The position numbers were made by a program, and so were the translations under genes. 64,000 nt of DNA, taken from a virus. Location: the IMG/VR virus record IMGVR_UViG_3300042934_001067, positions 92,277 to 156,276 of that record; one strand, written 5' to 3'. The notes under the pieces were generated by a model. It made no database searches and was not told the origin of the DNA. It worked only from the letters and a program-made list of their open reading frames with translations. Positions 11,286 through 48,179 of this stretch are shown piece by piece (the stretch's first letter is position 1; the number at the start of each line of letters is the position of its first letter).

Positions 11286-11319
11286 GAGATCTCCTCGGCG
11301 GCGGTAACGGGAGACCCCC

Positions 11320-11348
11320 ACCCTAATGCACATGGGTATGCATTGCAA
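11320..11348 (-). promoter_or_regulatory. promoter with palindromic operator in the spacer
   Basis: Read on the minus strand: -35 TTGCAA (11348-11343), a 17-base spacer and -10 TAGGGT (11325-11320). A palindrome AATGCA-N8-TGCATT (11325-11344) occupies the spacer, so a bound repressor would block polymerase. The predicted start near 11313 gives a leader carrying TTACCGCCGCC and the GAGGAG site of the gene at 10827-11285. Confidence 0.75.
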
Positions 11349-11400
11349 GGGATCAGGTAGGGCGCGCCAGTGGCGCGCCCTGTCCTGGGTCGTGGTGCTG

Positions 11401-12165
11401 TTACTGCTGGTCGGCGGCGCGGCAGAGTGCTTCGATGTTGGCGACGGTCTGGATGGGGGTCTGGTTGCCGTTGGTCGCTTCGGCGGTCACCTTGTCCTTG
11501 AAGGCACGCAGGCGTTCGTTCTCGGTGCGCAGTTCGGCGGTGGCCTGCCTGTCCTTGTGGACGGCCGAAATGAGCTGCGCGAGGGCGAGGCTGGTTGCCG
11601 AGGGGGTGCCGTCGACTGCCATGATCTGCGGGCGGGCGTCCGTCTCGGCGGCCGGGGCGGCGGGCTGGGCCGGGACCGGTGCGGCCGGGGTCTCCTGCTT
11701 CGGGGGCGTCTTCGGGGCGGCCGTCTTCTTGGCCGGGGTGGGCTTCTTGACTGCCCGCTTCTGGATGCTGCGGGTGTGGGTCCCCTCGACTCCGTGCGCC
11801 CTCCGGCGGTGCGAGCCCAGGCCCTGCGGGTGGGGCGTGGTGAAGGGGGGCTCCTTCTTCTCCTTGACGCAGTCCGGGCAGGTCAGAAGGTGCTCGTTGG
11901 CTTCTGCCTTCGCCGTCTCGCTCTTGCTCTCCGGGTCGTACTTCACCTGGGCGAGGAAGCCGTGCTTCGCGATGTTGGTGCGCAGCTGGGGTGCGGTGGG
12001 GTACGGGTTGCGGGGGATGCTGAAGGTCTGGTTCCTCTTGCCGCCCTTCACGCTGATCTTGATGCTGTTGGTGTTGCGGACCACCTCTAGTCCGGCGTCG
12101 GTGGCGGCCTTCATGACGTTCTCGACGTAGGCCGGGGTCTCCCGGGTCTTGGTCTCGGTGGCCAT
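11401..12165 (-). CDS. hypothetical protein with zinc-like site and basic linker
   Basis: 254 residues. The ATG at 12165 follows CAGGAG. The N-terminal 65 residues form a small alpha/beta domain (AATDAGLEVV...SIKISVKGG, SIPRNPYPTAPQLRTNIAKHGF) like a small nucleic-acid-binding fold. Then comes HLLTCPDCVKEKK with a downstream His-rich segment, a Lys/Pro/Ala linker (about 120-185) and a C-terminal coiled-coil-like helix (RQATAELRTENERLRAFKDKV). Last gene before the promoter region, downstream of the polyvalent genes. A role in DNA organisation is possible but unproven. Confidence 0.55.
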   Translation of the reverse strand: MATETKTRETPAYVENVMKAATDAGLEVVRNTNSIKISVKGGKRNQTFSIPRNPYPTAPQLRTNIAKHGFLAQVKYDPESKSETAKAEANEHLLTCPDCVKEKKEPPFTTPHPQGLGSHRRRAHGVEGTHTRSIQKRAVKKPTPAKKTAAPKTPPKQETPAAPVPAQPAAPAAETDARPQIMAVDGTPSATSLALAQLISAVHKDRQATAELRTENERLRAFKDKVTAEATNGNQTPIQTVANIEALCRAADQQ

Positions 12166-12197
12166 CTGGTGTTCTCCTGACTGCTGGTGCGTGGCGG

Positions 12198-14141
12198 TTA
12201 CAGCGTGGCGGGTGTGCTGGGGCGGCCGAAGAGTCTGGCCGGGTGGCGGGTGCCGCCGATGAAGGTGACGACTTCCTCGGCGTCCCAGTGGTGCTCGTCC
12301 AGGCGCGGCATGAAGCGGTGGTGCTGGCCGACGTAGGCGAGGGTGAGGTGCGGAGTCCAGCCGTGTTCGGAGGGCAGGCGGTAGCCGTGGCCTTCGAGGT
12401 AGGCGGCGAGGCTGGAGTGCATCTGGGCGCCGCTGGGGATGTCGGCCGCCGCCCACAGGACGTGCTCGCCCTTGAAGGCGTTGTTGAAGGTGCCGATGCC
12501 GCCGATGCGGACGTGGACGGGCTTGTGGCGGGCGGCCCAGGCGCCGACGACCTGCGGGAGCAGCTGGAGCTGCTCGCGGGTGTAGTCGGTGGTGTTGCCG
12601 AGGTAGGCGAGGGTGACGTGGAGCTGGTCGGCGGGCTGGCCGTCCTCGCGGGCCAGCTGTTCAGCGACCTCGCGCGGCGGCACGAGCGCCACCATCACGC
12701 CCTCGTCGTGGAGGACGGCTGCCGCCTGCCGCTGCAGGAACTGCTGCTCGGCCGCCGTGGCCTGGACAGCGGCGGTGTGGTGGGTCGGCTCGGTCCACCC
12801 GTCGTCCGGCCCGTGGACGGCGGGGTGCTCGATGTGGGGTCCGTTGTAGCCCCACTCGTTGATGTCGTTGCCGTCGGTGTGGACGTGCTTGGCTGGGACG
12901 GTGGCCTTCAGTACGGGCCAGTCCTTGGAGGGGTCGTCCGAGTGCATGCCGTGTTCTAGGGCGTACTGGGAGGAGGTGGAGACCCAGTCGCCGGTGCGGA
13001 TGCTGGTGGTGCCGTGGGGGACGGACCGGTAGATCGTGACCGGCGCCTCGGGATTGCCCTTGGCGCGGTGGACGGCCTTCAGCGACTCCTCGTGCGGCTC
13101 TCCGATCTCGCCCCAGTCGGGGTTGTCCAGCCCTTCCTGGTTGAACGCTCCGCCGTCGCCGTTGGGGCGGGTGGGGTCGTGCAGTGGAGCGTGTTCGGGT
13201 CCAGGCGCGCGGTGCTGCATCCGGTAGTCGTCGTCCATGGACGCAGTCTCCTGCAGGCCAGTCTCGCGGAAGTAGTCTGTCAGGCTGGAGAGTCGGTTGA
13301 TGGCCTTGTCGTAGTCGTGGAGGCCGACGTAGCCGATGTGGAGGGTGCCGTCGTCCAGGTCGCGGTGGATGACGCGATGGCCGCGCGAGGCCTTGGTGGA
13401 GTTCCAGCCCTTGAGCTTCAGGGTCAAGGCGTGAGTCTGCAGCCCCTCGTCGCCACGTTGCAGGGCATTGATGGTGCTGGCCACGCGCTTGCGGCTGTCG
13501 CCGTCGAGCTTGAGCAGCTCCTTCTTCGCGGACGGGTGGAAGGAGACCTGGCGCGGGCCTACAGGCCCAGCTCCTCCTTGATCGGCTCCCACGGCAGGTG
13601 CTGCTCCTGCGGGGTCTTCGCCCGCTCCTGCAGCTCCGTCTCCAGCTCCGGGCTGACGGCGTGGCCGTCCTCGTCCTGCGGTTCGGGTGCTGTCGGCTCC
13701 ATTTCGCTCCTTCCGGAAGTGCGCCGTGGCGGTGTGCGAGGGCTTCCAGCCCTCGTGGTCGTCCAGGCCCTGTTCGTCGCTCAGGTAGTCGGGCGACCAC
13801 CGAACTGGCACGTGTGAGAGGCCAGCCTTGGCGGCGGCCCAGTAGCGGTGCGTGCCGTCGTTGATGTAGGGGGTCCCGTCCTGCTTCCTCCACAGGTGGA
13901 TGGGGTGCTCGATGCCGCGCTGGCGGACGTCGTGCACGAGCGCGTGCAGGTGCTCGGGCTCGTAGCGGTCGTTCGCCATGTCGTCCGCGCTCCACTGCGC
14001 GACGTGCCCCATGGTGATCGGATTGCCGTGCTGGTCGCTGCCGTACTCGGAGTGCATGCGCGCTATGTCGTCCACGTGCATCATCTCGTCCGGCTGATGG
14101 GCTGCCGTACGGAAGAACGCGGTGGCGCTGTGCTCGGTCAT
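12198..14141 (-). CDS. polyvalent protein: ParB-like, RelE-like, ADP-ribosyltransferase-like and 2H phosphoesterase-like segments
   Basis: 647 residues in one open frame. Residues about 20-130 are ParB-like (INDGTHRYWAA). Residues about 196-280 are RelE/ParE-toxin-like (VSFHPSAKKELLKL, then GHRVIHRDLDDGTLHIGYVGLHDYDKA). Residues about 365-440 resemble phage ADP-ribosyltransferases (TIYRSVP, WVSTSS, NDINEWGY). Residues about 480-640 hold the two H-x-T boxes of 2H phosphoesterases (HVTLAYLG, HLTLAYVG). Residues 147-190 look unlike protein and are the shadow of a nested small gene. An internal GTG at 13592 could start the RelE part separately. Such multi-domain proteins are known near phage terminases and may enter the host with the DNA. 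Confidence 0.7.
   Translation of the reverse strand: MTEHSATAFFRTAAHQPDEMMHVDDIARMHSEYGSDQHGNPITMGHVAQWSADDMANDRYEPEHLHALVHDVRQRGIEHPIHLWRKQDGTPYINDGTHRYWAAAKAGLSHVPVRWSPDYLSDEQGLDDHEGWKPSHTATAHFRKERNGADSTRTAGRGRPRRQPGAGDGAAGAGEDPAGAAPAVGADQGGAGPVGPRQVSFHPSAKKELLKLDGDSRKRVASTINALQRGDEGLQTHALTLKLKGWNSTKASRGHRVIHRDLDDGTLHIGYVGLHDYDKAINRLSSLTDYFRETGLQETASMDDDYRMQHRAPGPEHAPLHDPTRPNGDGGAFNQEGLDNPDWGEIGEPHEESLKAVHRAKGNPEAPVTIYRSVPHGTTSIRTGDWVSTSSQYALEHGMHSDDPSKDWPVLKATVPAKHVHTDGNDINEWGYNGPHIEHPAVHGPDDGWTEPTHHTAAVQATAAEQQFLQRQAAAVLHDEGVMVALVPPREVAEQLAREDGQPADQLHVTLAYLGNTTDYTREQLQLLPQVVGAWAARHKPVHVRIGGIGTFNNAFKGEHVLWAAADIPSGAQMHSSLAAYLEGHGYRLPSEHGWTPHLTLAYVGQHHRFMPRLDEHHWDAEEVVTFIGGTRHPARLFGRPSTPATL
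13559..13702 (-). CDS. nested antitoxin-like small gene inside the polyvalent frame
   Basis: 47 residues in another frame of the same strand. The ATG follows GGAAGGAGCGAA, a strong ribosome site inside the larger frame. The product is acidic and ends with LPWEPIKEELGL, closely resembling the tail of small actinobacterial antitoxins (W-E-x-v-k-x-E-L-G-L). It ends just before the RelE-like segment, which has its own possible GTG start at 13592, the gene order of an antitoxin-toxin pair. Function is inferred. Confidence 0.5.
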   Translation of the reverse strand: MEPTAPEPQDEDGHAVSPELETELQERAKTPQEQHLPWEPIKEELGL

Positions 14142-16363: not shown

Positions 16364-16625
16364 CTGGCACCTCCAGTCCTTGGTGCTGAAGGTGGGGGTG
16401 CAGACACAGATGAGCGGACCTCCCGGTGGTACCTGGCCGGGAGGCCCGCTGGGTCATCGTGGGACGTTTTAAGTGGGGTGATCCCGCCAAGAACGACCCT
16501 CACGCCTGAGCCGACCTTGCGGTCTGTCGCTGCAGGTACGCCGCTGGCTGCATGCAGCAGCCCTATCCACGAGACAGGGCCATCGTGCCACGCGTTTTTG
16601 GGTTCGGCAAGAACGCCTTTCCTGG
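16364..16625. other. 262-base non-coding region after the terminase
   Basis: It holds a hairpin (next entry), the sequence CCGCCAAGAACG at 16484-16495 on the plus strand, and no gene with a credible start. It separates the terminase gene from the polyvalent gene on the same strand. Confidence 0.5.
16416..16447 (-). terminator. hairpin between terminase and polyvalent gene
   Basis: GGGCCTCCCGG pairs with CCGGGAGGTCC (one mismatch) around a 10-base loop, downstream of the terminase gene on the minus strand. Confidence 0.55.
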
Positions 16626-19165: not shown

Positions 19166-19296
19166 CGGCCGCTCCTGTCGGGGTCGAGTTGCTCGTACCA
19201 GCGCCAGAGCTGGGCGGTGGAGTACTCCCGGTGCCAGTCGGGATTTTCGAAGCCGATGGTGAGCTGGCGGACGAGGAAGGCGCGCAGGAAGCTCAT
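19162..19296 (-). CDS. 44-residue hypothetical protein
   Basis: A small gene in a run of ATGA overlaps: its start overlaps the stop of 19296-19772 and its stop overlaps the start of 18884-19165. The product starts MSFLRAFLVRQLTIGF, then an aromatic segment (QLWRWYEQL). Overlap on both sides supports it as real. Confidence 0.6.
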   Translation of the reverse strand: MSFLRAFLVRQLTIGFENPDWHREYSTAQLWRWYEQLDPDRSGR

Positions 19297-19772
19297 CAGT
19301 GCGGGTGTCCTCCGCGCGTGGCCTCCCCGGATGCGATGACGCCCTGGGTGCCGATGTCCGCGACGTCGTGGGTCACCTCGAAGACCTTCTGGTCGTGGTC
19401 GAAGGCCTTCTTCTCCACGCGTCCGGCGATTTCGATCTTCGGGCTGAGCTTGCCTTCGATGATCCTGCCGGTGGCCGTGTCCATGACCGGCTTCCAGCTG
19501 ACGGTGATGGCGAGTCCGAGCTGGTTGTGGACGCGCTCCTTCGCCTCGCGCTCGAAGACGTCGATGTCGAAGGCCTTGGCGCTGTACCGGTACAGCATGT
19601 CCTCGAAGATGGCCTCCAGCTGGAGGATCTCCGAGTCAAGGATGTCGCCCTGGGCGGTCTCCTGGCGCTTGTGGACTCCGCCGTACTCGCGGTCGAGGAA
19701 GTCGGGGCCCGGCGCGGCCGGGGACTGTACGCCCGGCGGCAGGATCAGGCCGGAGGGGTGTTCGGTGGTCAT
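19296..19772 (-). CDS. phage hypothetical protein
   Basis: 158 residues. The ATG at 19772 follows GAGGAGCC and the CCGCCAAGAGG leader motif. The N-terminal 30 residues are Pro-Gly rich. The rest is an alpha/beta domain with a charged helix (ILQLEAIFEDMLYRYSAKAFDIDVFEREAKERV) and beta strands at the end. It could be a structural or assembly protein, but no family was recognised. Confidence 0.6.
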   Translation of the reverse strand: MTTEHPSGLILPPGVQSPAAPGPDFLDREYGGVHKRQETAQGDILDSEILQLEAIFEDMLYRYSAKAFDIDVFEREAKERVHNQLGLAITVSWKPVMDTATGRIIEGKLSPKIEIAGRVEKKAFDHDQKVFEVTHDVADIGTQGVIASGEATRGGHPH

Positions 19773-19804
19773 GAGGCTCCTCTTGGCGGCAGGAGTGGGC
19801 GGGA

Positions 19805-20451: not shown

Positions 20452-21444
20452 TCAGGCGGCGGCGACGAGGGCGTGGCAGGAGGAGCAGCGTTCGGCTTCG
20501 TCTACGACGAGGGCTCCGGCGATGGACTGGAGCTTGGTGCGGACGGCGCGCTTGGTGGAGTCGTGGGCGAGCTTGGGGTTGTTGGCGGCGTTGCCGATCG
20601 CGAGGGCGAGGTCGAGCATGGTCGGCTCGTCGGTGCGGGAGAGGTCGACGGTGATGTCGGCGAGCGGCCGGACGGGCAGGCCGTGCTCGGCGGCGACGCG
20701 GTGCAGGCGGGTGATGCGGTCACCGCCGATGGAGGTGTTGGCCAGTCGGACCAGGTGCTGGGCGTCGGCGTGAAGGCGGGCGGCGGCGCGCAGGGCTTCG
20801 GCCGCGAGGCGTTCGGCGATCTTGTCGACGGAGATGCCGCGTGCGTCGATCTTCAGGGTGGGGTCGGGGATCTCGATGACCGTGGTGGTGTCCTCGTGGA
20901 AGAGGATGGGGCTGACGGTCGGCGCCAGGTTCTGCTTGCGGTTCTGGCCGAAGCGCAGGCCGCCCCGGATGCCGTCTTCGACGTCGTGGCCGAGGATGTC
21001 CAGGCGGAGGTCGTCGGCGGTGACCCAGCACTCGGGGACGGTGGCGCTGGCGGGGAAGATCCGCTGGGCGATTCGGACGAACTCGTCGGCTTCGACGCGG
21101 GGCTTGGTGGGCTTGCGGACGTCGGTGATGCCGAGGTCGTTGTAGGTGATGGTGATCTCACCCTCGGCGTGGTCCATGCGGGCGTTCATCACGAAGTGCT
21201 GCTCGGCCGGGGTGATCCGGCGGAAGTACGCGGTGGGGATCTGGTAGAAGGCGCACAGCCGGGCGCTGGCCTGCTCGTCCAGGGTGATCTCGTGGTCGCC
21301 GAGGATCAGGACGGGCTCCTGCTGCGGGGCGCGGGCGTAGTCGGCGCTCGGGACGCAGGCGTCGGAGGTCCATTCGCGGTCGTGGTGCTTCCAGGCGACG
21401 GCGACGTCGGCGAGGGTGGTCCTGGGGAGTTCGCGCAGGTGCAT
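20452..21444 (-). CDS. phage conserved hypothetical, DUF932-like shape
   Basis: 330 residues. The ATG follows GGAGAAC and a leader motif TTACCGCCAG. The N-terminal part (residues 1-90) has FYQIPTAYFRRITPAEQHFVMNARM, like the start of plasmid/phage DUF932 proteins. The long middle is alpha/beta, and the C-terminus ends CSSCHALV, a Cys pair. Enzymatic role unknown. Family match is weak. Confidence 0.5.
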   Translation of the reverse strand: MHLRELPRTTLADVAVAWKHHDREWTSDACVPSADYARAPQQEPVLILGDHEITLDEQASARLCAFYQIPTAYFRRITPAEQHFVMNARMDHAEGEITITYNDLGITDVRKPTKPRVEADEFVRIAQRIFPASATVPECWVTADDLRLDILGHDVEDGIRGGLRFGQNRKQNLAPTVSPILFHEDTTTVIEIPDPTLKIDARGISVDKIAERLAAEALRAAARLHADAQHLVRLANTSIGGDRITRLHRVAAEHGLPVRPLADITVDLSRTDEPTMLDLALAIGNAANNPKLAHDSTKRAVRTKLQSIAGALVVDEAERCSSCHALVAAA

Positions 21445-21507
21445 GGCGGTGGTGTTCTCCTCTGGCGGTAAGGAGTGGTGGTGGTCCGGCTGGCGGTCCG
21501 GAGGAAT

Positions 21508-22155
21508 TTAAATGTTGTTCTGCTGTGCGTTCTTCGAGAGGGCGGCGAGAACGGGGCTGGCGTCGAGGGCTGCGGCGAAGTCTTTCCGTCGGTCGACGGG
21601 GATGAATCCGATGGCGATCCGCATGTATTCCATGAGGGCGTCGCGCCAGACGTTGGCGTCCACTCCCCCGTTGACGGTGGTGTCGATTTTATGCTTGAGG
21701 TCGATGGCCTTCATCAGGGTCGCGGCGTCGACCTTGATGGTGCCCTTCTGGATGCCGTCGAAGCCCTGCAGTACAACCATATCCAGGGCGGAGAGGTGGT
21801 CGGCGACACGGCCGCCGTATTTTTCGATCTCGTCGCCGAGTTGTTCGGCCCGGCGGTCGAGGATGGCGGTCTGGGCGCGGACTTCGAGGGGCAGGTGGCG
21901 GTCGGTGTGGCCGCGCAGTGCCTTCTCGGAGGGGTGGCCCATGGGGCCTTCCTCCATGTCGGCGAGCCATTCGAGGATGGTCGGCCGGGTGTAGCCCTCG
22001 ATGATCCAGGCGTCGATCTTGGCGCGGTGGGGGGACTGGCAGACGCGGCAGCGGGCGCCGGTCTTGGCGGGGACCGTGCGGTCTCCGATCTTGACCAGGA
22101 CCATGCTGGCGGGGCCTGCGTCCGGGTCGGCGAGGGCGGGGAGGTTGTCGCTCAC
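21508..22155 (-). CDS. putative DNA-binding phage protein (small-terminase-like?)
   Basis: 215 residues. Near the N-terminus is a CRVCQSPHRAKIDAWI zinc-like motif, then a helix-turn-helix-like stretch (YTRPTILEWLADMEEGPMGHPSEKALRGHTDRH), then a long helical region suited to oligomerisation. The arrangement recalls DNA-recognising small terminase subunits, and the large subunit lies 2.7 kb downstream in the same direction. The evidence is circumstantial. Confidence 0.4.
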   Translation of the reverse strand: MSDNLPALADPDAGPASMVLVKIGDRTVPAKTGARCRVCQSPHRAKIDAWIIEGYTRPTILEWLADMEEGPMGHPSEKALRGHTDRHLPLEVRAQTAILDRRAEQLGDEIEKYGGRVADHLSALDMVVLQGFDGIQKGTIKVDAATLMKAIDLKHKIDTTVNGGVDANVWRDALMEYMRIAIGFIPVDRRKDFAAALDASPVLAALSKNAQQNNI

Positions 22156-22828: not shown

Positions 22829-22973
22829 AGGCGGGTTCCTTTGCTGACGCGTGGCGGTCGCGCCTTACCTGGTGCTCATGTGGCGGCAGTGCACCTGGAA
22901 TTTCTGTCAGCATAGGTGTGGTCCCGCCTGCAACTCCAACTTTTCGTCGCAGGAACTTCGGTGCGGGACAGGA

Positions 22974-23815: not shown

Positions 23816-24570
23816 GCTGCGGCGGACAGCGGCATGACGGCGGCCTGGGCCTGTCGCTCCTTTTCGTCGAGGAGCCAGGCGAGGGCGAGCATGCAGGCGT
23901 CGCGGATGTGCTCGTTCCAGGGCATGTTCTTGCCCTGGTCCTTGGGCGGGGTCAGGTAGGCCTCGACCATCTCCTTGACGTGGGCCTTCTTGACCGGGTT
24001 CTGCTTGGTTCCGGCGCGGCCGATGAGGAGCTTCTTGGCGTGGCGGTTGTCGACCATGACGGCCCGGCCGCCGGTGGCCCGGTGGACCTCGCGTCCGGCG
24101 AGCAGGATGGACTCGACGCGCTGGCCGTGGACTGGCGGGCGCTCGTAGAGAACAGCGTCGGCCGAGGAGGCGTAGCCCCGGCGATGCTGCAGGACGCTGC
24201 CGTAGACGTACTCGGCGCGGGCGTAGTTGCCGTCGGTGGAGGGGATGTCCAGGACCTCGGCGGGCGGCCGGATCATCGCGGTGGACAGCAGGTGCAGGCC
24301 CAGCTCGTTGGACTTGAGCAGGACGACGCCGGTGTTGGCCAGGGACTGGTCGAATGCCTGGACGGTGGCGTGGGCGAACTGGTCGAGCGTCGGCGGCTGG
24401 AACGGCTTGTGGCGGATCGCGGTGTCCAGGCCGGGGATGGAGGGCTGGGCGGTCTTCATGAGGGCTCCGTTGGCGGTCGGAGGGGCGGGGTCGACGAGGC
24501 GGTCGCCGACGTAGATGTCCCGATTGGCGGTGTCGAGACCGACGTGTTCGAGCAGGCTGCGGATGGTCAT
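23812..24570 (-). CDS. RuvC-like Holliday junction resolvase-type protein
   Basis: 252 residues. RNase H-fold motifs: strand AFDQSLANTGVVLL with first Asp (about residue 73), YERPP with Glu (about 143), the basic stretch HAKKLLIGRAGTKQNPVKKAHVKEMV, and a helix with EHIRDACMLAL carrying the last acidic residue. This is the layout of RuvC-like enzymes that resolve branched DNA. The ATG at 24459 (GGAG upstream, leader motif ACCGCCAACGG) may be the true start; the longer one adds 37 residues. Confidence 0.75.
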   Translation of the reverse strand: MTIRSLLEHVGLDTANRDIYVGDRLVDPAPPTANGALMKTAQPSIPGLDTAIRHKPFQPPTLDQFAHATVQAFDQSLANTGVVLLKSNELGLHLLSTAMIRPPAEVLDIPSTDGNYARAEYVYGSVLQHRRGYASSADAVLYERPPVHGQRVESILLAGREVHRATGGRAVMVDNRHAKKLLIGRAGTKQNPVKKAHVKEMVEAYLTPPKDQGKNMPWNEHIRDACMLALAWLLDEKERQAQAAVMPLSAAA

Positions 24571-25078: not shown

Positions 25079-25923
25079 GCGGCGAAACCGATCTTGACGG
25101 AGCAGGTGCTGGCGGGGCACTTGCGGGCTGCTGCCTTGGCGGTGCAGCAGGCGACGGGTGGCGGAGTTCCCATCTCGACGTACTGTCTGACGGCGCGGTA
25201 CTTCGCTTCCAGGCGGGCGATGTAGAGGTCGTCGCGCGGGATGGTGAACTCGACCATCTTCCATCCGTCGCTCATGGCGAGGAAGAGAATCAGGGCCTTC
25301 GTTTTCCCGGTGAGGGCCATGTACTCCTGGGCCTGGCCGTAGTAGTAGGGCCACTTGAGCCTGAAGGCGTCCAGGTCGTTGCTTTCGATCCCGCGCAAGG
25401 CGGCGGGAGCGGAGGTCTTGAGGTCGAAGATCGCGGCGCCGGGCTCGCACCAGCCGGGGATGTCGAGGAGGCCGTCCATGTGACCGCGCCGTCCGAGGAG
25501 GTCGTCACGTACGCCCCACTCGTCGCACTTCCCCTTGCCCTTGCCGTGGGGCTTGCCACAGCAGACGCAGGTGCCCTTCGGCGGAACGAGGAGACCCATC
25601 TTGATCATGACGGTCTGGACGACCTCGTGCATGATCGTGCCGACCAGGACGGACATCCGGGGGCCGTAGTCCCACTCCGGCTCGATCCACTTCTCTGGGT
25701 GGGCGAGGTAGTAGTACAGCTTCCGCTCGTCCATCGTGGGATGGGTCGAGGGGTGGAACCAGCCGTCGGGCTCACGCTTGGCGGCGTAGGACTCCAGGCG
25801 GACCACGAAGTTCTTGGGGAACGCGCACTGCTGGACGGCGTTTTCAATCAGCGGTACGAGGACCAGCTTCTGGCTGTCGGCGACGACTCGCCGGAAGCTG
25901 GGGGTGAAGACGGGGGCGGCCAC
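25075..25923 (-). CDS. PD-(D/E)XK nuclease, Cas4/RecB-like
   Basis: 282 residues. The GTG at 25923 follows GGGAG; a longer start at 26019 would run inside the membrane gene. Motifs: GHMDGLLDIPGWCEPGAAIFDLKTSA (Asp, then D-x-K), and YYYGQAQEYMALTG (Q-x-x-x-Y helix). Cys groups are CVCCGK and, near the C-terminus, ACCTAKAAARKCPASTC, the places where Cas4/AddB-type enzymes hold an iron-sulphur cluster. It probably trims DNA ends in recombination or replication. Cas4 itself is less likely because no cas genes are near. Confidence 0.75.
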   Translation of the reverse strand: MAAPVFTPSFRRVVADSQKLVLVPLIENAVQQCAFPKNFVVRLESYAAKREPDGWFHPSTHPTMDERKLYYYLAHPEKWIEPEWDYGPRMSVLVGTIMHEVVQTVMIKMGLLVPPKGTCVCCGKPHGKGKGKCDEWGVRDDLLGRRGHMDGLLDIPGWCEPGAAIFDLKTSAPAALRGIESNDLDAFRLKWPYYYGQAQEYMALTGKTKALILFLAMSDGWKMVEFTIPRDDLYIARLEAKYRAVRQYVEMGTPPPVACCTAKAAARKCPASTCSVKIGFAA

Positions 25924-28396: not shown

Positions 28397-28423
28397 GCAG
28401 GATCTCCCTGGCGGTAGAGCGGA

Positions 28424-28642: not shown

Positions 28643-28715
28643 GTGGCTCCTTGGCGGGAGGAGTGGTCAGCTGTGGCGGTCAGCTGTTGGCCAATGGCGG
28701 TTGGCTGAATGCAGC

Positions 28716-34695: not shown

Positions 34696-35673
34696 TCAGG
34701 CGGTGGGTGCGCCGAGGTTGGCGATCTTCGCACGCAGGTCGTCGGAGATGTCGGCCGGGCCGTCGGTGCTCTGGACGTTGATCATGCCCACGGCGCCACC
34801 GGCGACGGCGACGACGTTGCCTTCCTTGTCGACCGTCTTGGACGGGTCGAAGAAGCGGGCGTAGTACTCGTCGCTGGCCTTGTCGGCGACGACGGCGTCC
34901 AGACTGATCTCGCGCTCGCTGATGGCCTGGAGGTACTTGTCCCAGGCGGGGGTGCCGGGGGCGATGAGGTTCTGCTGGGTGGACGGGTCGCGGATCGGGT
35001 CGATCGCGGCGAACTTGTACTCGGTGTCGGTGCCCTTGCCGTCGCGGGTGATCTGGAAGTCCCGGTCGACGACGGTGCCGTTGAGGCCGTGGATGGCCTT
35101 GAGGTGGCTGAAGAAGCCCTTCATCGGCTGGTTGATGACCAGGATGCGGGGGTAGTTCAGCTTGACGCCGGTGGGCTTGCCGTCGGCGTCCAGTTCGTCG
35201 ACCTCGTCGATCTTGTCGCGGACACCGATGACGACGCCCTGCTTGGCGGGGCCGCCGAGGGCCTCGGTGCCGTCGCCGCGCACCAGCTCGCGCTCGATGG
35301 CCAGGGCCCAGACGCGGACGCGAGCGGAGGCGAGCTTGCCGAAGGAGTTCTTGATCTTGGCGTCGTCGATGTAGCAGTCCTTGTAGTGACCGCCGAACGC
35401 CTCGTCGTAGCGGCAGACGCTGGTCATGGCCTTGGGCCACTTCTCGGCGTCCTTGGGGCCGGGCTTGGTCGGCACGAAGGAGTGCTGCTTGACCCAGATC
35501 CAGTCGTCGTGGTCGGTGACCAGGCGGACGACGAGCGACTCGCCGTCCTCCTTGATGCCGAAGTAGTCCGGGCCACGGCGGCCAGAGGAGGAGACGTTGT
35601 CTTCCTTCTCGGCCTGGGCTGCGGCGGATCCGCCTCGGCGGAAGTTGATGGCGGGGCTCGTGTTGGCGGTCAC
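34696..35673 (-). CDS. candidate single-stranded DNA-binding protein
   Basis: 325 residues; GTG start after CAGGAG. The first 30 residues are low-complexity, then an OB-like mixed beta region with aromatic/basic residues (LVTDHDDWIWVKQHSFVPTKPGPK, SVCRYDEAFGGHYKDCYIDD) that resembles T4 gp32-like phage SSBs. The C-terminus is acidic-Ala rich (DISDDLRAKIANL), which may recruit partners. It lies between the polymerase and the J-like gene, in the replication block. The match is by shape and place, not by a signature motif. Confidence 0.55.
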   Translation of the reverse strand: MTANTSPAINFRRGGSAAAQAEKEDNVSSSGRRGPDYFGIKEDGESLVVRLVTDHDDWIWVKQHSFVPTKPGPKDAEKWPKAMTSVCRYDEAFGGHYKDCYIDDAKIKNSFGKLASARVRVWALAIERELVRGDGTEALGGPAKQGVVIGVRDKIDEVDELDADGKPTGVKLNYPRILVINQPMKGFFSHLKAIHGLNGTVVDRDFQITRDGKGTDTEYKFAAIDPIRDPSTQQNLIAPGTPAWDKYLQAISEREISLDAVVADKASDEYYARFFDPSKTVDKEGNVVAVAGGAVGMINVQSTDGPADISDDLRAKIANLGAPTA

Positions 35674-35709
35674 GATGGCTCCTGATGATCTTGACGATGC
35701 TGATGGGTG

Positions 35710-36456
35710 TCAGCCAGCGGCAGTGGCGGCTGCCGCGATCAGCTCCTCGGTCACCGGCTGGTCTTCGTGTAGAAAGAAAACGGGGGTTCCGAGGTCTTTC
35801 GCCACGAGGAACGGCACGTCCCCGGCGGCGTGGAATCCAACGGTGAATCCGGTGAGTTCCCGTCCGCGCAGGGCCTGGGCGAGTCCTTCCTGCCACTGGG
35901 CGAGCCTGGCGACGTCGTCGCAGGTGGAGCCCAGGAGAAGGTAGGAGTACCCCCAGGTGTTCGAGGGGCTGGATGAGGGTTGGCGGTCCCTCGTCTCGTC
36001 ATCATGAAAGCCGTCCGCCGGGTCGGAGGCAAGAAATTCGAGGAGCGGTTTTCCGGAGGCGTCCGTGAGAGTTGAAAGAATGTCTCTGGCCGTGATCTCG
36101 GTGCCGTATTCAGCGTTCTGACGGGCGGCCTGCAGCGCGGCGGAGCGCATGATCGTCTCGACGGCGGAGGCGTCGAAGTGCGTCGTGCCGGGCTGCTTAG
36201 CGTCGTACGCGGCCCGCCGATCGGCGTTGATGAGCGTCTTGAAGATCTGGGTCAGCTCGGCGCTGCTTTGGCCGCCCAGGGCCTGGTACGCCTCGCGGAT
36301 CTCCCGCTTGGTCGCGGTCGGCGGTACGCCAAGCCGGGCGTAGTAGCCGTTGACGTCATGGACGACGGGCGCCGGGCGGGGCGGGGCCGGAACGAGGGCG
36401 GTGCTGGTGGAGAGGATCGCGTGATCGGGACGGCCGACGAGCTGCAGTCCCGGCAT
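35710..36456 (-). CDS. J-domain-like protein without HPD motif
   Basis: 248 residues. Residues 35-75 fit a J-domain (VNGYYARLGVPPTATKREIREAYQAL) with AYD at the end of the fourth helix (NADRRAAYD), but the HPD triad that stimulates DnaK is replaced: helix 2 ends in QALGGQSS. It may therefore bind a partner without activating Hsp70. The C-terminal 150 residues are unknown, with an alpha/beta region (SYLLLGSTCDDV, FTVGFHAAGDVPFLVAKDLGTPVFFLHED) that resembles a SLOG/nucleotide-binding fold. The ATG follows GAGG. Confidence 0.6.
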   Translation of the reverse strand: MPGLQLVGRPDHAILSTSTALVPAPPRPAPVVHDVNGYYARLGVPPTATKREIREAYQALGGQSSAELTQIFKTLINADRRAAYDAKQPGTTHFDASAVETIMRSAALQAARQNAEYGTEITARDILSTLTDASGKPLLEFLASDPADGFHDDETRDRQPSSSPSNTWGYSYLLLGSTCDDVARLAQWQEGLAQALRGRELTGFTVGFHAAGDVPFLVAKDLGTPVFFLHEDQPVTEELIAAAATAAG

Positions 36457-41077: not shown

Positions 41078-41078
41078 G

Positions 41079-41942
41079 TCATACCGCCGTGATGGGTCGG
41101 GCCAGGCCGAGGTCGGCTTCCTGGCGTGAGAGTTCGCGTCGTGCGGGCCGGAAGTCGGCGCCGGTCACCTCGATGAAGTCGGCAGCCTCGGTGAGCAGGC
41201 TCATCGCGTAGACGCCGTACCCCTGCTGGATCTCGTCGGGGGTGAGGTTGGTGGTGAAGATGGTGGGGGCAGCGTCGGCAACGCGGGAGCGGACGATCTG
41301 GTCGACCATGGACTCGACCATCTCGATGCGGCCCTTGTTCTCCTTGCCCCAGTCGTCGATGGCGAGGACGTCCACGTTGCGCACCCGGCGGGTCCACTGC
41401 TCGCGCTCGTCCTTGTCGCGCCAGCTGGAGGTGAAGAGGTCGATCACCTCGTTGAACTGGGAGAAGTGGACCTGGAAGCCGTTGAGCATGAGGAACTTCG
41501 ACAGCAGGGCGAGCAGCAGCGTCTTGCCAGTGCCGGGACTCCTGGACCACAGGACGAGGTTGCGTCCGGCCGCGATGTTGCGGGCGGCCTGGAGGGCGTA
41601 GCCCATGACCTGGTCTGCGACTGCCTTCGGGACGGTGTGGACGTCGTCCCAGCCGAGGCGCTGGTAGTTCAGCGGGATGCCCGCGTTGAGGAACCAGAGG
41701 TGCATGAGCCACTGGTCCCGGCAGTTGCACTCGTAGGTGACGATCTCGTCGGTACGGCGTCCGGTGTCGGGGTGGTCGGCGTACCAGCGGTAGGTCTGGG
41801 AGTCCTGCAGCCCTTCTCGCTTCAGGCAGGTGAGGCAGGACGTCTTGGGGTCGGTCCACAGGCGCGGCCGGGCGGCCTTGAGCCGTCGGAAGTCGGCGTC
41901 GGCCAGCGGCGCGCAGGAGGGGGGCGGGGGTGGTCGCTTCAA
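41079..41942 (-). CDS. DnaC/IstB-type helicase loader
   Basis: 287 residues. AAA+ ATPase that loads DnaB. Walker A SPGTGKT at about 140, Walker B VDVLAIDDWG, sensor-like IFTTNLTPDE. The N-terminal region has Cys pairs (SCLTCLKRE, YECNCRD) like the zinc-containing loaders of phages. TTG start with AAGGA 8 bases upstream and the ACCGCCACC motif just before. Confidence 0.8.
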   Translation of the reverse strand: MKRPPPPPSCAPLADADFRRLKAARPRLWTDPKTSCLTCLKREGLQDSQTYRWYADHPDTGRRTDEIVTYECNCRDQWLMHLWFLNAGIPLNYQRLGWDDVHTVPKAVADQVMGYALQAARNIAAGRNLVLWSRSPGTGKTLLLALLSKFLMLNGFQVHFSQFNEVIDLFTSSWRDKDEREQWTRRVRNVDVLAIDDWGKENKGRIEMVESMVDQIVRSRVADAAPTIFTTNLTPDEIQQGYGVYAMSLLTEAADFIEVTGADFRPARRELSRQEADLGLARPITAV

Positions 41943-41986
41943 GGTGGCGGTCCTTGATGAGGGCCCGGTGGCGGCCGGGCGATGGA

Positions 41987-42241
41987 TCAGGTGGCGGCGA
42001 GGTGCTGACGGATGTGCTGGTCAAGCAGGCCTTGCTCCCAGCGGGCCATCTGCTGGTGCCAGGTGGGCCGTTTCTGGCCCACGTGTTCTCCGGGCCGGTC
42101 GCAGCAGACGGAGAAGCCGCCGTGGCGGGGACACTCCAGTTCCGGCCGGGGGCCGCTGAAGCAGAGGTAGACGTCGGGGCAGCAGGTCGGCTCGCTGCTG
42201 TGGAGCACGATCTGACCGTTCTCGATGGCCACGTCAGCCAT
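41987..42241 (-). CDS. small Cys-rich protein
   Basis: 84 residues; the ATG overlaps the end of the upstream gene. Cys groups EPTCCPDVYLCFSG, ELECPRHGG and SVCCDRPGEH suggest one or two zinc sites. Located in front of the loader gene. No family recognised. Confidence 0.5.
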   Translation of the reverse strand: MADVAIENGQIVLHSSEPTCCPDVYLCFSGPRPELECPRHGGFSVCCDRPGEHVGQKRPTWHQQMARWEQGLLDQHIRQHLAAT

Positions 42242-42632
42242 CGGTGAGCCGCTCCGCGATGGGGCGGGCGAAGTAGTCGTCGTTGCCCTTGGTGAAGCGG
42301 CGGATGTCGACCGGGGCGGAGCGCCAGAAGCCGTCCTGCTGCTCGAAGGCGAAGCGGGCGATGGGCCCGGCCTGGCTCCCCCAGCGGTTGGCGAAGCTCT
42401 TGAAGATCGAGTTGACCTTGGCACTCTCGTGGCGGGGCTGGGGGCCGTGGCGTTCGGCGACGGCGCGCATGACGTAGTCGCGGAGCTGCTCCCAGGACCA
42501 GTCGGCGGGGGCGTCGAGGAGGTCGGTGGCGGCCATGGACACGGGGCCGGGCGCGGCGGCCGGGCGGATGGTGGCCGGGGGCGCCGTGGGGGTGGCTGCC
42601 TTGCCGTAGGCGGCAGCGGAGAAGTCGAGCAC
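42234..42632 (-). CDS. phage hypothetical protein in the replication block
   Basis: 132 residues. The GTG at 42632 with GGAG 6 bases before is preferred over a TTG at 42644. N-terminal 30 residues are Ala/Pro-rich. Then a helical domain with aromatic/basic residues (WSWEQLRDYVMRAV, VNSIFKSFANRWGSQAGPIARFAFEQQDGFW) that may bind DNA or the helicase. Promoter 42717-42746 and leader motif lie upstream. No family recognised. Confidence 0.5.
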   Translation of the reverse strand: MLDFSAAAYGKAATPTAPPATIRPAAAPGPVSMAATDLLDAPADWSWEQLRDYVMRAVAERHGPQPRHESAKVNSIFKSFANRWGSQAGPIARFAFEQQDGFWRSAPVDIRRFTKGNDDYFARPIAERLTDG

Positions 42633-42716
42633 AGGGGTCTCCAACCTGGCGGTGGCTGGGTACGGCGAGATGGCGGTCTGCCGTGGTGAGGGGCCTCTTG
42701 GCGGTGAGGCGCTTTG

Positions 42717-42746: not shown

Positions 42747-42755
42747 GGAATCGCT

Positions 42756-44134: not shown

Positions 44135-44144
44135 ATGCCACTAG

Positions 44145-44168: not shown

Positions 44169-44210
44169 GCTGTGACGTTCGTATTGTCGGTGATGTTCTG
44201 GCCGTCTGGC

Positions 44211-44948
44211 CTAGCGGATGTGGATGCTGAGAACGCCCGGCTTGACGACGGTGATCATCTTGATGATCTCCTGCGCCCGCTCACGCTTGGTCGGCGAAAT
44301 CATCGCGCTGCGGATCTTCTTCTCGTCGAGGTCGCGGACCTGCGTCGTGAAGGCGAGGTACTCGGCCCGGCTGATCTTCCCTTCCTCGTAGACCGCGAGG
44401 AGCAGTTCGTGGCTCATGTCGGCCTTGTCGTTGGCCTTCTCGCGGGTGAGGATCTTGTCGGACCCCTCGATGGCCTGCTCCAGCCGGTTTCCGGACGCGC
44501 CGATCAGGTAGTGGCCGTTGCCGTCCTTGGGCGTCTTCTCCGGGTCGACCAGGTTCAGGTCCTCGGCGTAGACGTCGAAGTGGGTGGAGAGCCACTCGTT
44601 CACCGCCTTCTCCCGCTTGGCGATGGCCGTCTTCGCGGCGGCGAGGCTCTCCTTCTCGTTCAGAACCTGCGTCAGCTCCGTCTTGTTGAGCAGGCGGCGG
44701 CTGGCGGGCTCCTTGACGGTACCGAAGGAGTTGGGCAGGACCTCGACGGCTGCCTTGGCCTCCTCGGCCGCGCGCGCGGCGGCCTCCTTGCTGACCTTCT
44801 TCCGGGAGGCGGGCGGCGCGGTGACCGGAATCGTGGCCAGCTGGGCCAGCACGTCGGCGAGGTTGAGGTCCTCGTTCTTCTGGAGCTGGACGACGGCCTT
44901 GTCGAAGTCGAAGGTCGGAACGATCTCGGTGGTCTTGGCGGTAGACAC
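44211..44948 (-). CDS. phage hypothetical protein, helical
   Basis: 245 residues; GTG start. An Ala/Lys-rich helix (KKVSKEAAARAAEEAKAAVEV) and a second helical block follow a short N-terminus. The C-terminus is alpha/beta with a Lys-rich patch (SPTKRERAQEIIKMI). The first gene behind the palindrome-containing promoter 45001-45030. It could be a recombination mediator or nucleoid-type protein, but there is no family match. Confidence 0.55.
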   Translation of the reverse strand: MSTAKTTEIVPTFDFDKAVVQLQKNEDLNLADVLAQLATIPVTAPPASRKKVSKEAAARAAEEAKAAVEVLPNSFGTVKEPASRRLLNKTELTQVLNEKESLAAAKTAIAKREKAVNEWLSTHFDVYAEDLNLVDPEKTPKDGNGHYLIGASGNRLEQAIEGSDKILTREKANDKADMSHELLLAVYEEGKISRAEYLAFTTQVRDLDEKKIRSAMISPTKRERAQEIIKMITVVKPGVLSIHIR

Positions 44949-44977
44949 GATGGTGCTCCTGTGTTCTGAGGTTGTCG

Positions 44978-44992
44978 TTCTTGGCGGTGAAC
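44978..44992 (-). promoter_or_regulatory. leader motif GTTCACCGCCAAGAA
   Basis: The clearest copy of a recurrent motif in 5' leaders of this element. It starts about two bases after the predicted transcription start and lies 30 bases before the GTG at 44948. Confidence 0.55.
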
Positions 44993-45000
44993 GTGGTTAC

Positions 45001-45030: not shown

Positions 45031-45038
45031 CAGGGTCG

Positions 45039-47144
45039 TCACGCTGCCGGGAGCAGCCCTCGTCCGTCGGGCTGCCAGAAGAAGTCGCGGACGTCGGCGA
45101 TCGACGTGGTGACGCGCGCGGGCGGCAGGGCCTTGACGATGCCCCGGCCGTAGCCCTTGCTGGCGAGGCGGGAGTCCATGATGGCGACGGCGCCCCAGTC
45201 GTCCGTGCTGCGGATGAGGCGCCCGAAGGCCTGCTGGAGCGTCAGGGTCATGGAGGGGACGACGAGGTCGCTGAAGGCGCTGCCGCCCTGGCGCTCGATG
45301 GCCTCGGAGCGGGCCTTGTGGATCGGGTCGGTGGGGACGGCGAAGGGCAGCTTGTCGACGACGACGAGCCGGTTCGTGTTCCCCGGGAAGTCCATGCCGG
45401 TCATGAAGCTCCGCAGGCCGAACAGGACGCTGTTCTCGTCCTCGCGGAAGCGGTCGGAGATCTCCTTGACGCTCATCTGGCCGCCCTGGACGAACGAGTT
45501 GATGCCGTCGGCCCGGAGCTGGCTGGCGAGGGTGTCGTGGGCGGCGTTCATGGCCTTGCGGGAGGTGTAGAGGAGCATGGCCCCTCCCCCGGCGGCCCGG
45601 ACGAGTTCGAGGGTGGCGGAGTGGAGCCAGGTCTCCCACTCGCTGCGGGTCTTCCCGGCCGGGGCGGGCACCGAGGAGTCGGGGTGGAAGAACAGGGCCT
45701 GCTTCGGGTAGTCGAAGGGGCTGCCGACGTCGAGGGTGGCGGCGGTGTCCTTCAGGCCGAGGCGGCGCGAGAGGTAGTCGAAGCGGCCCGGGCCGGTGCC
45801 CGCGCTGAGGGTGGCGGACATCAGCACGGCCGGGTAGCGACTCCACAGCTCCTCGCGGAGGTAGGGGCCGACGTCGATGGGCGCGGCCCTGATCAGCCAG
45901 CGCTTGCCGATGCGCATGCGCTCGTGGCCGTACATCTCGGCCCAGCGGACCATCTCGTTCGGGTCGGCGAGGAGGACGGCCTTGACGCCCTTGAGGAAGT
46001 TCGTCCCCACGGTGAGGACGCGGTCCTTGATCGCCTGCTCCTTCTCCACGTGGGAGCCGTCGGCGATCTTCCTCTTGCTCACGCGGGTGCGGAGGGTCTC
46101 CAGCGTGTCGTAGAGGGTGATGAACAGGTCGGCGTAGCGGGTGACGAAGTCGGCGTCGATGGCGCCGGTGTCGTCGTGCTCCAGGTGGTCGGCGATCGGC
46201 CGGGAGAGGGCCTCGACGGCGGCGGTGACGCGCTCGTGCAGGGCAAAGGACTCGCCCGCCCGCTGCTCGTCGACATCCTCGTGGACGGCGAGGAAGGAGG
46301 CGGCCTGGTCGGCCCACTTGAGCAGGCCGCCCTGCTTGATGTCGAAGCCGAGGTGGCTGGTGGCCTGCTCCTCCAGCTCGTGGGCCTCGTCCACGATCAG
46401 TCCGTCGTACGGGCCGAGGAAGGGGTGGCGGCGCTCGGCCTCGGAGTTTCCCCCGGCGGTCTCGCGGGCGATCTTCGTGTCGGTCAGGAGGATGGCCATG
46501 TTGGTCGCGACGATGTCGGCCTCCATGGCGGCGTCCTTGTGCTTCATCGCGAAGCACTGCTCGCCGAAGGAGCACTTCGAGCGGCCCGGGCACTCGTCGC
46601 TGGTCGAGGAGACCAGGTGCCACTCGGTGCGCTGCTCGACAGGCGTCTGGATGTCGTCGCGGTCACCGGTGTGGCGGTAGGTGCCGTCCTGGTCGGGGGC
46701 CAGCTCGTCCAGGAGCTGCTGCACGTTGGCGACGGCCGGGCGCTCGGCCAGCTTGGCCAGGCAGGCGAAGTTCGAGACGCCCTTGAGTGGGGCCCAGGTG
46801 AAGTCGATGCCCGCCTGCCCCAGGACGCCCTCCAGCCATGGGAGATCCTTTTTTGTGTACTGGGCCAGGAGGGCGTTCGTCGCCGTGGCGACCACGTAGC
46901 GCTTCGGCTCCTCGCCCGCCCGGGCCGCGAGGATCGCGGCGATCAGGGCGGCGTAGGACTTGCCGGTGCCGGTGCCCGCCTCGGCGAGCAGGTGCAGGGG
47001 CTCGTTCTCGTCGAGGTCCTGGCTGAACGTCAGCTCGATCGCCTGGGCCAGCTGTTCCTGTTGCGGGCGGCGGCGGTAACCCGGGAGGTTCTGCGCGAAC
47101 AACTCCTGGAGGGACAGAAAGGTCGCAGGCGGCGCGGACGTCAT
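45039..47144 (-). CDS. DinG/XPD-type helicase
   Basis: 701 residues. The superfamily 2 helicase acts on R-loops, D-loops or other branched DNA. Walker A AEAGTGTGKS at 54-63; four Cys for the iron-sulphur cluster within FACLAKL and DECPGRSKCSFGEQCF; DEAH box LIVDEAHELE; then MSATLSAGTGPG and the C-terminal FGRLIRSTDDWG motif VI. The ATG at 47144 follows CAAGGGGCCC; a longer frame to 47438 runs in the regulatory region. Two leader motifs precede it. Confidence 0.9.
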   Translation of the reverse strand: MTSAPPATFLSLQELFAQNLPGYRRRPQQEQLAQAIELTFSQDLDENEPLHLLAEAGTGTGKSYAALIAAILAARAGEEPKRYVVATATNALLAQYTKKDLPWLEGVLGQAGIDFTWAPLKGVSNFACLAKLAERPAVANVQQLLDELAPDQDGTYRHTGDRDDIQTPVEQRTEWHLVSSTSDECPGRSKCSFGEQCFAMKHKDAAMEADIVATNMAILLTDTKIARETAGGNSEAERRHPFLGPYDGLIVDEAHELEEQATSHLGFDIKQGGLLKWADQAASFLAVHEDVDEQRAGESFALHERVTAAVEALSRPIADHLEHDDTGAIDADFVTRYADLFITLYDTLETLRTRVSKRKIADGSHVEKEQAIKDRVLTVGTNFLKGVKAVLLADPNEMVRWAEMYGHERMRIGKRWLIRAAPIDVGPYLREELWSRYPAVLMSATLSAGTGPGRFDYLSRRLGLKDTAATLDVGSPFDYPKQALFFHPDSSVPAPAGKTRSEWETWLHSATLELVRAAGGGAMLLYTSRKAMNAAHDTLASQLRADGINSFVQGGQMSVKEISDRFREDENSVLFGLRSFMTGMDFPGNTNRLVVVDKLPFAVPTDPIHKARSEAIERQGGSAFSDLVVPSMTLTLQQAFGRLIRSTDDWGAVAIMDSRLASKGYGRGIVKALPPARVTTSIADVRDFFWQPDGRGLLPAA

Positions 47145-47172
47145 GAAGGGCCCCTTGAGGGTGGTGATGCTG

Positions 47173-47207
47173 CTCTTGGCGGTGAGCAGTGAAGTTCTTG
47201 GCGGTGG
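47173..47207 (-). promoter_or_regulatory. two leader motifs before the DinG-type gene
   Basis: CTCACCGCCAAGAG and CCACCGCCAAGAA in tandem, 9 bases apart, within the 5' leader of 45039-47144. The upstream copy starts at the transcription start predicted from the TAGCGT box. Confidence 0.55.
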
Positions 47208-47981
47208 TCGCGACGCTACACAGGGCCAGGAGCGGTGTCGCGTTTTTGCTCCGGCGGATTTCCGGCCGGGGTGGGCTGGGCAGGAGAAAGGCCCGGGATC
47301 CGGTCTTCGAGAGGCACCACCCCCTCCCGGACCCCGGGCGACCCACATTCCGGCACTGCCAATCGTCGTAGCAGAAGGTGCCTTGCAGAGCAGTCTGTCC
47401 CACCGAGGACAGGACGAACAAGGGCAATCCCCATCCATAGGGATTTCACACCTGCCGGGGCGTCAGGTGCTCCCGTGCGCGTGTCTCCTGCGCCGGTTCC
47501 GTGCGTTTGGTCCACCAGACGTACTAGGGTGGCCTACGCGACCTTCGTAGGACTCCCGCCCCCGGGTCGCGTCTGCTTCATCTGGCTCCAGAAACACCAA
47601 CGGCCGCCTGGTCGGACTGGGATCCCCATCCCGGTCCTTGGCGGCCGTCCGACAGGAAACTTTGGCCGGTCTCTGTCGGTGGGGCCAACAACCTCATATC
47701 CAAGTCCGAAGTTCAGCTCCTCCGGAGGTCGCTGGCATGACCCAGCCTACCCAAAAACTGCTCCCGGTGTACACGACCCGGTCGAGCGACACGCCGCTGC
47801 AGGCCAGCGCCCACAGGCCGTTCGGGTGCCGACTCCCCGTTCCGGCCTCTCATGATGTTGAATGTCCTTCGGACCGAGACCGCCACTCCTGGTCCACCAC
47901 CACGATCTCCCCTCGGGCCCACGTGCGCCCGAACCCGCCGAAGGGGGCAGTCTGCTGTGAAGAACACCCTGGAAACGCCGG

Positions 47982-48018
47982 AGGGGCGCCTGGAGTCCTT
48001 CAACTCCGTGGCGCCCCT
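47982..48018. terminator. hairpin terminator in the 1-kb gap
   Basis: Perfect 9-bp stem AGGGGCGCC/GGCGCCCCT with a further TGGAGT...ACTCCG pairing inside. Confidence 0.65.
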
Positions 48019-48179
48019 CACCGCGTAGTGCGGTAGCAAGGATCCTCTCCGCCAAGAAACGGATCCTCACGGGGAACTGCCAGGTTCCCCTCCAGGCAAC
48101 GCGACCTATTCGGTCTGACCATCGCCTTCACGGTGGCTGGGCCCCAACCTCAGAACGGTATAGAAAGGCCTCGCCAGCC

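What the first reader, a model, noticed from the sequence alone, without database searches (positions are those of the whole stretch)
11297..48058. Recurrent ACCGCCA(A)GA leader motif upstream of many genes
Copies lie before starts on the coding strand: 11297-11308, 12193-12200, 19781-19790, 21461-21470, 22851-22860, 24470-24480, 28404-28415, 28651-28657, 42695-42708, 44978-44992, 47173-47186, 47195-47207, and on the plus strand at 48049-48058 before a plus-strand gene. At three or more of them it falls right after the predicted transcription start. It resembles the idea of start-associated sequences known in some mycobacteriophages, with a different sequence. It may bind a phage regulator or help translation. 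A copy at 16484-16495 is in the wrong orientation for the nearest gene.
Basis: partly seen in the sequence, partly recalled or inferred. Interest (0 to 1): 0.7.

Follow-up and report, generated by a model that had tools for sequence, protein, structure and literature searches.

The report
Phage-wide RNA hairpins at gene starts
A group of large Streptomyces phage-plasmids carries about 40 small RNA hairpins per genome, all showing the same loop (CCGCCA) on different stems and mostly placed over or just before ribosome-binding sites of replication genes, which looks like a shared translation-control signal read by a still unknown factor.

Summary
On the gene strand, 5-8 bp stems of unrelated sequence present one loop, (N)CCGCCA(N). 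Among all 4096 hexamers as loop cores, CCGCCA ranks first in this 156-kb genome (41 hairpins; none on the other strand) and in six relatives. Leader CCGCCA sites form stems of 5 bp or more 27 times in 72; shuffling the flanks gives 2.3 (maximum 10 in 1000). With RefSeq starts in the relative pRLB1-9.1 (Streptomyces), 21 of 34 hairpins lie at -80..+20 of a start (10.7% expected, p=1e-12). The stem often contains the Shine-Dalgarno or start codon. Genes include RecA, SSB, helicase loader, RuvC-like, sigma and helicase. One relative (G010) has switched its leaders to CTGCCA, at orthologous hairpins too, which argues for a trans-acting reader of the loop. More distant phages keep one CCGCCA hairpin, at the helicase-loader gene, so the set probably grew from it. 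Best explanation: RNA operators for translation, like the T4 gp43 operator or CsrA sites, used across the phage genome. The factor, and repression versus activation, are unknown. No match in Rfam or the papers searched.

The parts
47170..47189 (-). hairpin ctgctc-ACCGCCAA-gagcag, 25 nt before helicase gene 45039-47144; in relatives G002/G005 the start is assigned inside this hairpin
44976..44993 (-). hairpin cgttc-ACCGCCAA-gaacg, 27 nt before gene 44211-44948; relatives cgttc-TCCGCCAA-gagcg
42693..42710 (-). hairpin gcctc-ACCGCCAA-gaggc, first of three before gene 42234-42632 (-60)
42662..42684 (-). second hairpin acggc-AGACCGCCATCTC-gccgt (relatives cacggcag-ACCGCCATC-ttgccgtg)
42641..42659 (-). 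third hairpin ccagcc-ACCGCCA-ggttgg (-8); stem with its G.U pair kept in all 9 distinct leaders; in G010 the stem is kept with loop CTTTGCCAC
41963..41980 (-). hairpin gcccg-GCCGCCAC-cgggc 20 nt before dnaC-like loader gene; the probable ancestral site, found at the same place in L223, L224, L226, L244, L017
41939..41957 (-). hairpin tcaagg-ACCGCCA-ccttga containing the TTG start codon of the dnaC-like gene 41079-41942
35717..35736 (-). hairpin gcggca-GCCGCCAC-tgccgc (-43) before SSB gene 34696-35673; compensatory acggca/tgccgt in relatives
35658..35675 (-). hairpin tcgtg-ACCGCCAA-cacga containing the GTG start of the SSB gene; G010 has gcgtg-ACTGCCAA-cacgc
28668..28686 (-). hairpin cagctg-ACCGCCA-cagctg (-25) before gene 28424-28642
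28647..28663 (-). hairpin ctcct-CCCGCCA-aggag (-4), Shine-Dalgarno in the 3' arm, gene 28424-28642
28404..28419 (-). hairpin ctct-ACCGCCAG-ggag (-7), Shine-Dalgarno in the stem of the recA leader; 5-bp ctcct/aggag in G001, G004, G008
25128..25150 (-). hairpin ctgctgc-ACCGCCAAG-gcagcag (-49) before gene 24584-25078
24465..24482 (-). hairpin ctccg-ACCGCCAA-cggag with CGGAG in the 3' arm, 5 nt before ATG at 24459 of the RuvC-like gene
22846..22864 (-). hairpin ggcgcg-ACCGCCA-cgcgtc (-17) before sigma70 region-4 gene 22442-22828; gacgtg/cacgtc in G007
21485..21502 (-). upstream hairpin tccgg-ACCGCCAG-ccgga (-40) of gene 20452-21444
21457..21475 (-). hairpin ctcctt-ACCGCCA-gaggag (-12), Shine-Dalgarno in the 3' arm, gene 20452-21444
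19777..19795 (-). hairpin ctcct-GCCGCCAAG-aggag (-4), Shine-Dalgarno in the 3' arm, gene 19296-19772
48039..48068 (+). plus-strand site before the divergent gene: AGGATCC-TCTCCGCCAAGAAAC-GGATCCT, 7-bp stem with larger loop; ends approximate
   Evidence: sequence read directly
11297..11308 (-). degenerate copy (CCGCCG) before gene 10827-11285; intact hairpin in the G002 ortholog

Best explanation
A family of about 40 short RNA stem-loops on the transcripts of a Streptomyces phage-plasmid acts as a set of translational operators. Each hairpin displays the loop (N)CCGCCA(N) on a stem of arbitrary sequence. A trans-acting factor, most likely a phage-encoded RNA-binding protein, reads the loop. At many genes the nearest hairpin contains the Shine-Dalgarno or start codon, so binding would stabilise the stem and hold back the 30S subunit; hairpins further upstream (20-65 nt) would add affinity or cooperativity. 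The set co-ordinates replication and recombination genes with several small early or middle genes. Shown by computation: the hairpin family, strand, position at starts, stem compensation, loop conservation, and the loop switch in a relative. Inferred: the trans factor, its being a protein and phage-encoded, and repression rather than activation.
For: Unbiased loop ranking: CCGCCA first of 4096 hexamers in G000 (41 genome / 22 window on the gene strand, 0 on the other; 29 permuted hexamers 0-9), and first in G001, G005, G007, G002, G008, G004. Re-paired flanks: 27/72 leader sites observed against 2.3, similar in 6 relatives. RefSeq starts of pRLB1-9.1: 21/34 within -80..+20, p=1e-12. SD or start codon in the stem, up to three hairpins per leader. 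Stem changes with compensation in orthologs. G010: CCTGCCA is the top leader 7-mer (19 in leaders, 12 in all CDS); CTGCCA 36/77 intergenic while CCGCCA is at background 20/202; CTGCCA leader hairpins 7/38 against 0.8; orthologous SSB and 3'-UTR hairpins carry the changed loop. Control: 100 kb of a Streptomyces plasmid and 50 kb of mycobacteriophage Dandelion show no CCGCCA hairpin excess. Probable ancestral dnaC site in distant phages: 5 of 13 dnaC leaders against 3 of 411 other genes, p=6e-7.
Against: No factor identified; no small gene's presence tracks the hairpins. Some hairpins lie upstream of, not over, the Shine-Dalgarno (including the ancestral dnaC site), so occlusion cannot be the only mode. 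About a dozen hairpins lie outside leaders. A number of leader CCGCCA copies have no stem. Single-leader folding z-scores are modest (-0.2 to -2.5). True double compensations among close relatives are few (5-9 cells), because many stems are conserved.
Confidence: 0.7

Rival explanations
1. The hairpins are intrinsic translation modulators (RBS-tuning structures or standby sites) with no dedicated factor; the loop is fixed because it folds well or helps the ribosome.
For: Hairpins sit in the ribosome-binding region. No factor found.
Against: Stability alone would not fix a 6-nt loop: CCGCCG loops stay at 3/44 in leaders while CCGCCA reaches 25/66. Streptomyces plasmid DNA shows no such hairpins. 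The genome-wide switch to CTGCCA in G010 is hard to explain without a reader.
Confidence: 0.12
2. The loop pairs with a trans-acting RNA (phage small RNA or rRNA segment with UGGCGG) that opens or masks the start site.
For: A 6-nt single-stranded loop is suited to kissing; CUGCCA could still pair with UGGCGG through one G.U (inference).
Against: No hairpin with a complementary loop exists on the gene strand (plus-strand CCGCCA hairpins 0), and intergenic TGGCGG copies are not at common places among relatives (partial list inspected).
Confidence: 0.1
3. The element is a processing site: a phage or host endoribonuclease recognises the loop, cuts, and thereby frees the Shine-Dalgarno or destabilises the mRNA.
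For: Placement over Shine-Dalgarno sequences resembles T4 RegB targets (PMC3014915); two hairpins also lie directly before a terminator.
Against: Start codons inside some hairpins would be damaged by cleavage in the loop; no nuclease candidate was tested.
Confidence: 0.12
4. DNA-level operators (double-stranded palindromes).
For: The stems are palindromic in DNA too.
Against: Only the centre is conserved and it is asymmetric; arms are unrelated between sites; all on the gene strand; conserved G.U pairs (ccagcc/ggttgg in 9 of 9 leaders); G.U outnumber A.C changes in stems that keep the loop (13 to 7).
Confidence: 0.04

Closest known systems
T4/RB69 gene 43 translational operator (autoregulation by DNA polymerase gp43)
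   Same: Short leader hairpin (16-18 nt) with a specific loop near the ribosome-binding site; loop sequence drifts between related phages (UAAC, UAAA) (PMC3014915). Here a 5-bp stem plus 8-nt loop is also 18 nt, and the loop also changes in a relative.
   Different: One gene in T4; about 25 leaders and 40 hairpins here; different loop; reader unknown.
CsrA/RsmA regulon
   Same: Many targets, several sites per leader, one at the Shine-Dalgarno, motif shown in hairpin loops, also sponge-type RNAs (PMC4066749).
   Different: Motif is A(N)GGA there, CCGCCA/CTGCCA here; a CsrA homologue was not searched for across the whole phage proteome.
T4 RegA
   Same: One phage regulator for about 30 early and replication mRNAs at their starts (PMC3014915).
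   Different: RegA sites are A+U-rich and unstructured.
SAS/ESAS of Cluster K mycobacteriophages
   Same: Repeated, one-directional, start-associated element in the non-structural half of an actinophage; function unknown (PMC3203893).
   Different: SAS is a conserved linear 13-mer including the Shine-Dalgarno; ESAS repeats do not support RNA pairing according to its authors.

Membership tests
SAS (Cluster K) | consensus GGGATAGGAGCCC with at most 2 deviations, 3-7 nt before the start | tested here: not met
   no such 7-mers among the top leader-enriched set; conserved element is CCGCCA in a loop
CsrA/RsmA sites | A(N)GGA in the loop | tested here: not met
   loops are NCCGCCAN; GGA occurs only in the stem as Shine-Dalgarno
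CsrA/RsmA sites | CsrA homologue present | not tested
   only about 45 of the roughly 200 phage proteins were scanned
RegA sites | A+U-rich, unstructured, overlapping AUG | tested here: not met
   G+C-rich hairpins
gp43-type operator | leader hairpin of about 18 nt with conserved loop, variable between phages | tested here: met
   loop switch
gp43-type operator | bound by the product of the controlled gene | not testable with these tools
   no binding data
Any Rfam family | match at the gathering score | tested here: not met
   0 matches in the window

The most novel reading that the evidence does not exclude
A phage-encoded RNA-binding protein of an undescribed family runs a post-transcriptional regulon of about 25 genes through one loop code; the code began as a single operator at the helicase-loader gene, spread over the genome in Streptomyces phage-plasmids, and was rewritten from CCGCCA to CTGCCA in one lineage.
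Probability: 0.5. Interest if true: 0.82.

Novelty: new variant of a known kind. Interest (0 to 1): 0.72.

Why it matters
Known phage translational operators usually serve one gene (MS2 coat, T4 gp32, gp43) or lack structure (RegA). Here one hairpin code is repeated at some 25 leaders, its likely single-copy ancestor is visible in distant relatives, and a related lineage has changed the code at many sites. That makes both the spread of an RNA regulon and the co-evolution of RNA-recognition specificity open to direct test. Variable stems with a fixed loop also suggest a useful tethering module for Streptomyces.

Tried and rejected
Linear motif explanation: raw strand bias is shared by permuted hexamers. 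Rfam: nothing. Host origin: 100 kb of a Streptomyces plasmid shows no enrichment. Other phages: exact SD-type hairpin patterns in 2.9 million viral contigs give several copies only in this phage group, singletons elsewhere. Outgroup G009 and the distant contigs have no hairpin family. Cultured Mycobacterium and Gordonia phages with a DnaC-like gene have no leader there and no hairpin. Identification of the factor by gene content failed; the small basic protein at 22152-22445 (DUF7236) is conserved in every relative but also where hairpins are absent. A sequence alignment of dnaC hairpins was misregistered by loop length and not used. The genome-contig scan gave only distant DnaE genes.

Full report
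WHAT THE WINDOW IS. The window is bases 92277-156276 of a 156,276-bp virus record, G+C 68.6%. It encodes a DnaE-type polymerase, RecA, SSB, DnaB/DnaC-like proteins, primase, helicases and tail genes. Relatives of the same size exist: G001 (92% in DnaE), G005, G007, G002, G008, G004, and G010 (65%). G005 is plasmid pRLB1-9.1 of Streptomyces sp. RLB1-9 (NZ_CP041653.1), with ParA, ParB, an HK97-type capsid protein and a baseplate protein, so the group most likely consists of Streptomyces phage-plasmids.

THE OBSERVATION. All listed strings exist. Their over-representation is real, but strand bias alone is not telling, because the gene strand is C-rich and permuted hexamers are biased too. Looking at both sides of the motif shows inverted repeats with a different sequence each time: GTTC-ACCGCCAA-GAAC, GCTC-ACCGCCAA-GAGC, CTCCT-TACCGCCAG-AGGAG. 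I therefore ranked every hexamer as the core of a hairpin loop with a stem of 5 bp or more. CCGCCA on the gene strand came first of 4096 (22 in the window, 41 in the genome), with none on the opposite strand and 0-9 for the 29 permutations. The same blind scan put CCGCCA first in six relatives.

STATISTICS. Re-pairing the 5' flanks of leader CCGCCA sites with 3' flanks of other sites keeps composition and destroys true stems: 27 observed against 2.3 in G000, 26 in G001, 21 in G005, 17 in G007, 15 in G002, 16 in G008, 15 in G004, no shuffle of 1000 reaching any of them. With the RefSeq gene starts of pRLB1-9.1, which do not depend on my gene prediction, 21 of 34 hairpins lie at -80..+20 of a start, a zone of 10.7% of the sequence, p=1e-12.

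ANATOMY. Stems are 5-8 bp, loops mostly 7 or 8 nt, with A most common before and A or C after the core. Three placements recur. (a) Shine-Dalgarno in the 3' arm, 4-12 nt before the start: 19777, 21457, 24465, 28404, 28647. (b) Start codon inside: SSB (35658), DnaC-like loader (41939), thymidylate synthase (L041:17630), and a helicase in relatives. (c) Further upstream, -17 to -65, often together with a or b, up to three in a row (42641-42710; folding shows all three). Controlled genes are mainly replication and recombination genes, a sigma region-4 protein and small genes of unknown function at 50-61 kb of the genome; late structural genes have few.

EVOLUTION. In orthologous leaders the loop stays and the stem varies with compensation: gcggca/tgccgc to acggca/tgccgt, ggcgcg/cgcgtc to gacgtg/cacgtc, tcctg/cagga to acccg/cgggt. 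When the loop is kept, 20 of 35 changed stem cells still pair; when it is lost, 22 of 89 do. In G010 the CCGCCA family is missing; there CCTGCCA is the most enriched leader 7-mer, CTGCCA is 36/77 intergenic (CCGCCA 20/202, background), CTGCCA leader sites form stems 7/38 against 0.8, and a blind scan of its DnaE region puts CTGCCA/TGGCAG first. At orthologous hairpins the loop has changed: SSB start tcgtg-ACCGCCAA-cacga against gcgtg-ACTGCCAA-cacgc, and the 3'-UTR hairpin CTGTAG-ACCGCCAA-CTGCAG against GGGTAG-ACCTGCCA-CTACCC. More distant phages (41-52% DnaE) have no family, but several keep one CCGCCA hairpin 21-25 nt before the DnaC-like gene (L223, L224, L226, L244, L017; a bulged one in the 44% G+C phage L230/L246): 5 of 13 dnaC leaders against 3 of 411 other genes, p=6e-7. 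CCGCCA is therefore probably the ancestral loop, the dnaC site the founder, and CTGCCA derived.

MECHANISM. A concerted change of one loop base at many unlinked sites implies a reader. Position over Shine-Dalgarno sequences and start codons implies action on translation initiation. The simplest model is a protein that binds the loop and holds the stem closed. The deep dnaC site hints that the founder may have been autoregulation within the replication operon, as for T4 gp32 and gp43 (PMC3014915), but nothing here tests that. Upstream-only sites leave activation possible.

KNOWN OR NEW. Geometry equals the T4 gp43 operator (18 nt); use at many genes equals CsrA or RegA; start association equals SAS. 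None has this loop, and each other family fails a tested defining feature (membership table). No paper found in eight searches of the open PMC library describes it; that is not proof of absence.

LIMITS. All evidence is computational. Gene starts outside pRLB1-9.1 are my predictions. Leaders were defined by those predictions, but repeats the position test with RefSeq starts. Relatives among metagenome loci are partly redundant.

Noticed in passing
L044 (genome 63-80 kb) and window 11307-11345: About nine middle genes share a palindromic promoter-like element AATGCAyATcsATrTGCATTAG; relatives have their own version (G005 GCAAC..GTTGC..TAGAGTG, G008 AACGCATCT..AGATGCGCTA, G010 TTGCGCATACTC..TGCACTAG), suggesting a lineage-specific transcription regulator.
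   Followed up: partly
L042:9808-9869 (genome 29808-29869): Two CCGCCA hairpins directly before a very strong terminator after a small conserved gene; kept in G001, G005, G007 and, with CTGCC-type loops, G010. Possibly a 3'-UTR small RNA that titrates the factor.
   Followed up: partly
L041-L043, e.g. leader of L041:14733-15368: Late genes share CAAGGGGTGA (GAAGGGGTGA in G010) 12-45 nt before the start, enriched 11- to 25-fold in leaders; function unknown, could extend anti-Shine-Dalgarno pairing.
   Followed up: no
window 5545-5570 and 5658-5683: 26-nt inverted repeat, 96% complementary, between divergent genes 5152-5376 (-) and 5709-6572 (+); looks like a regulatory operator pair.
   Followed up: no
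window 22152-22828: Sigma70 region-4 protein followed by a 97-aa basic DUF7236 protein, both conserved in every relative down to 41% DnaE identity; possibly a phage transcription pair.
   Followed up: no
L223, L224, L226, L244, L017 dnaC leaders: Single CCGCCA hairpin conserved 21-25 nt before the DnaC-like helicase loader in distant phages that lack the rest of the family.
   Followed up: yes
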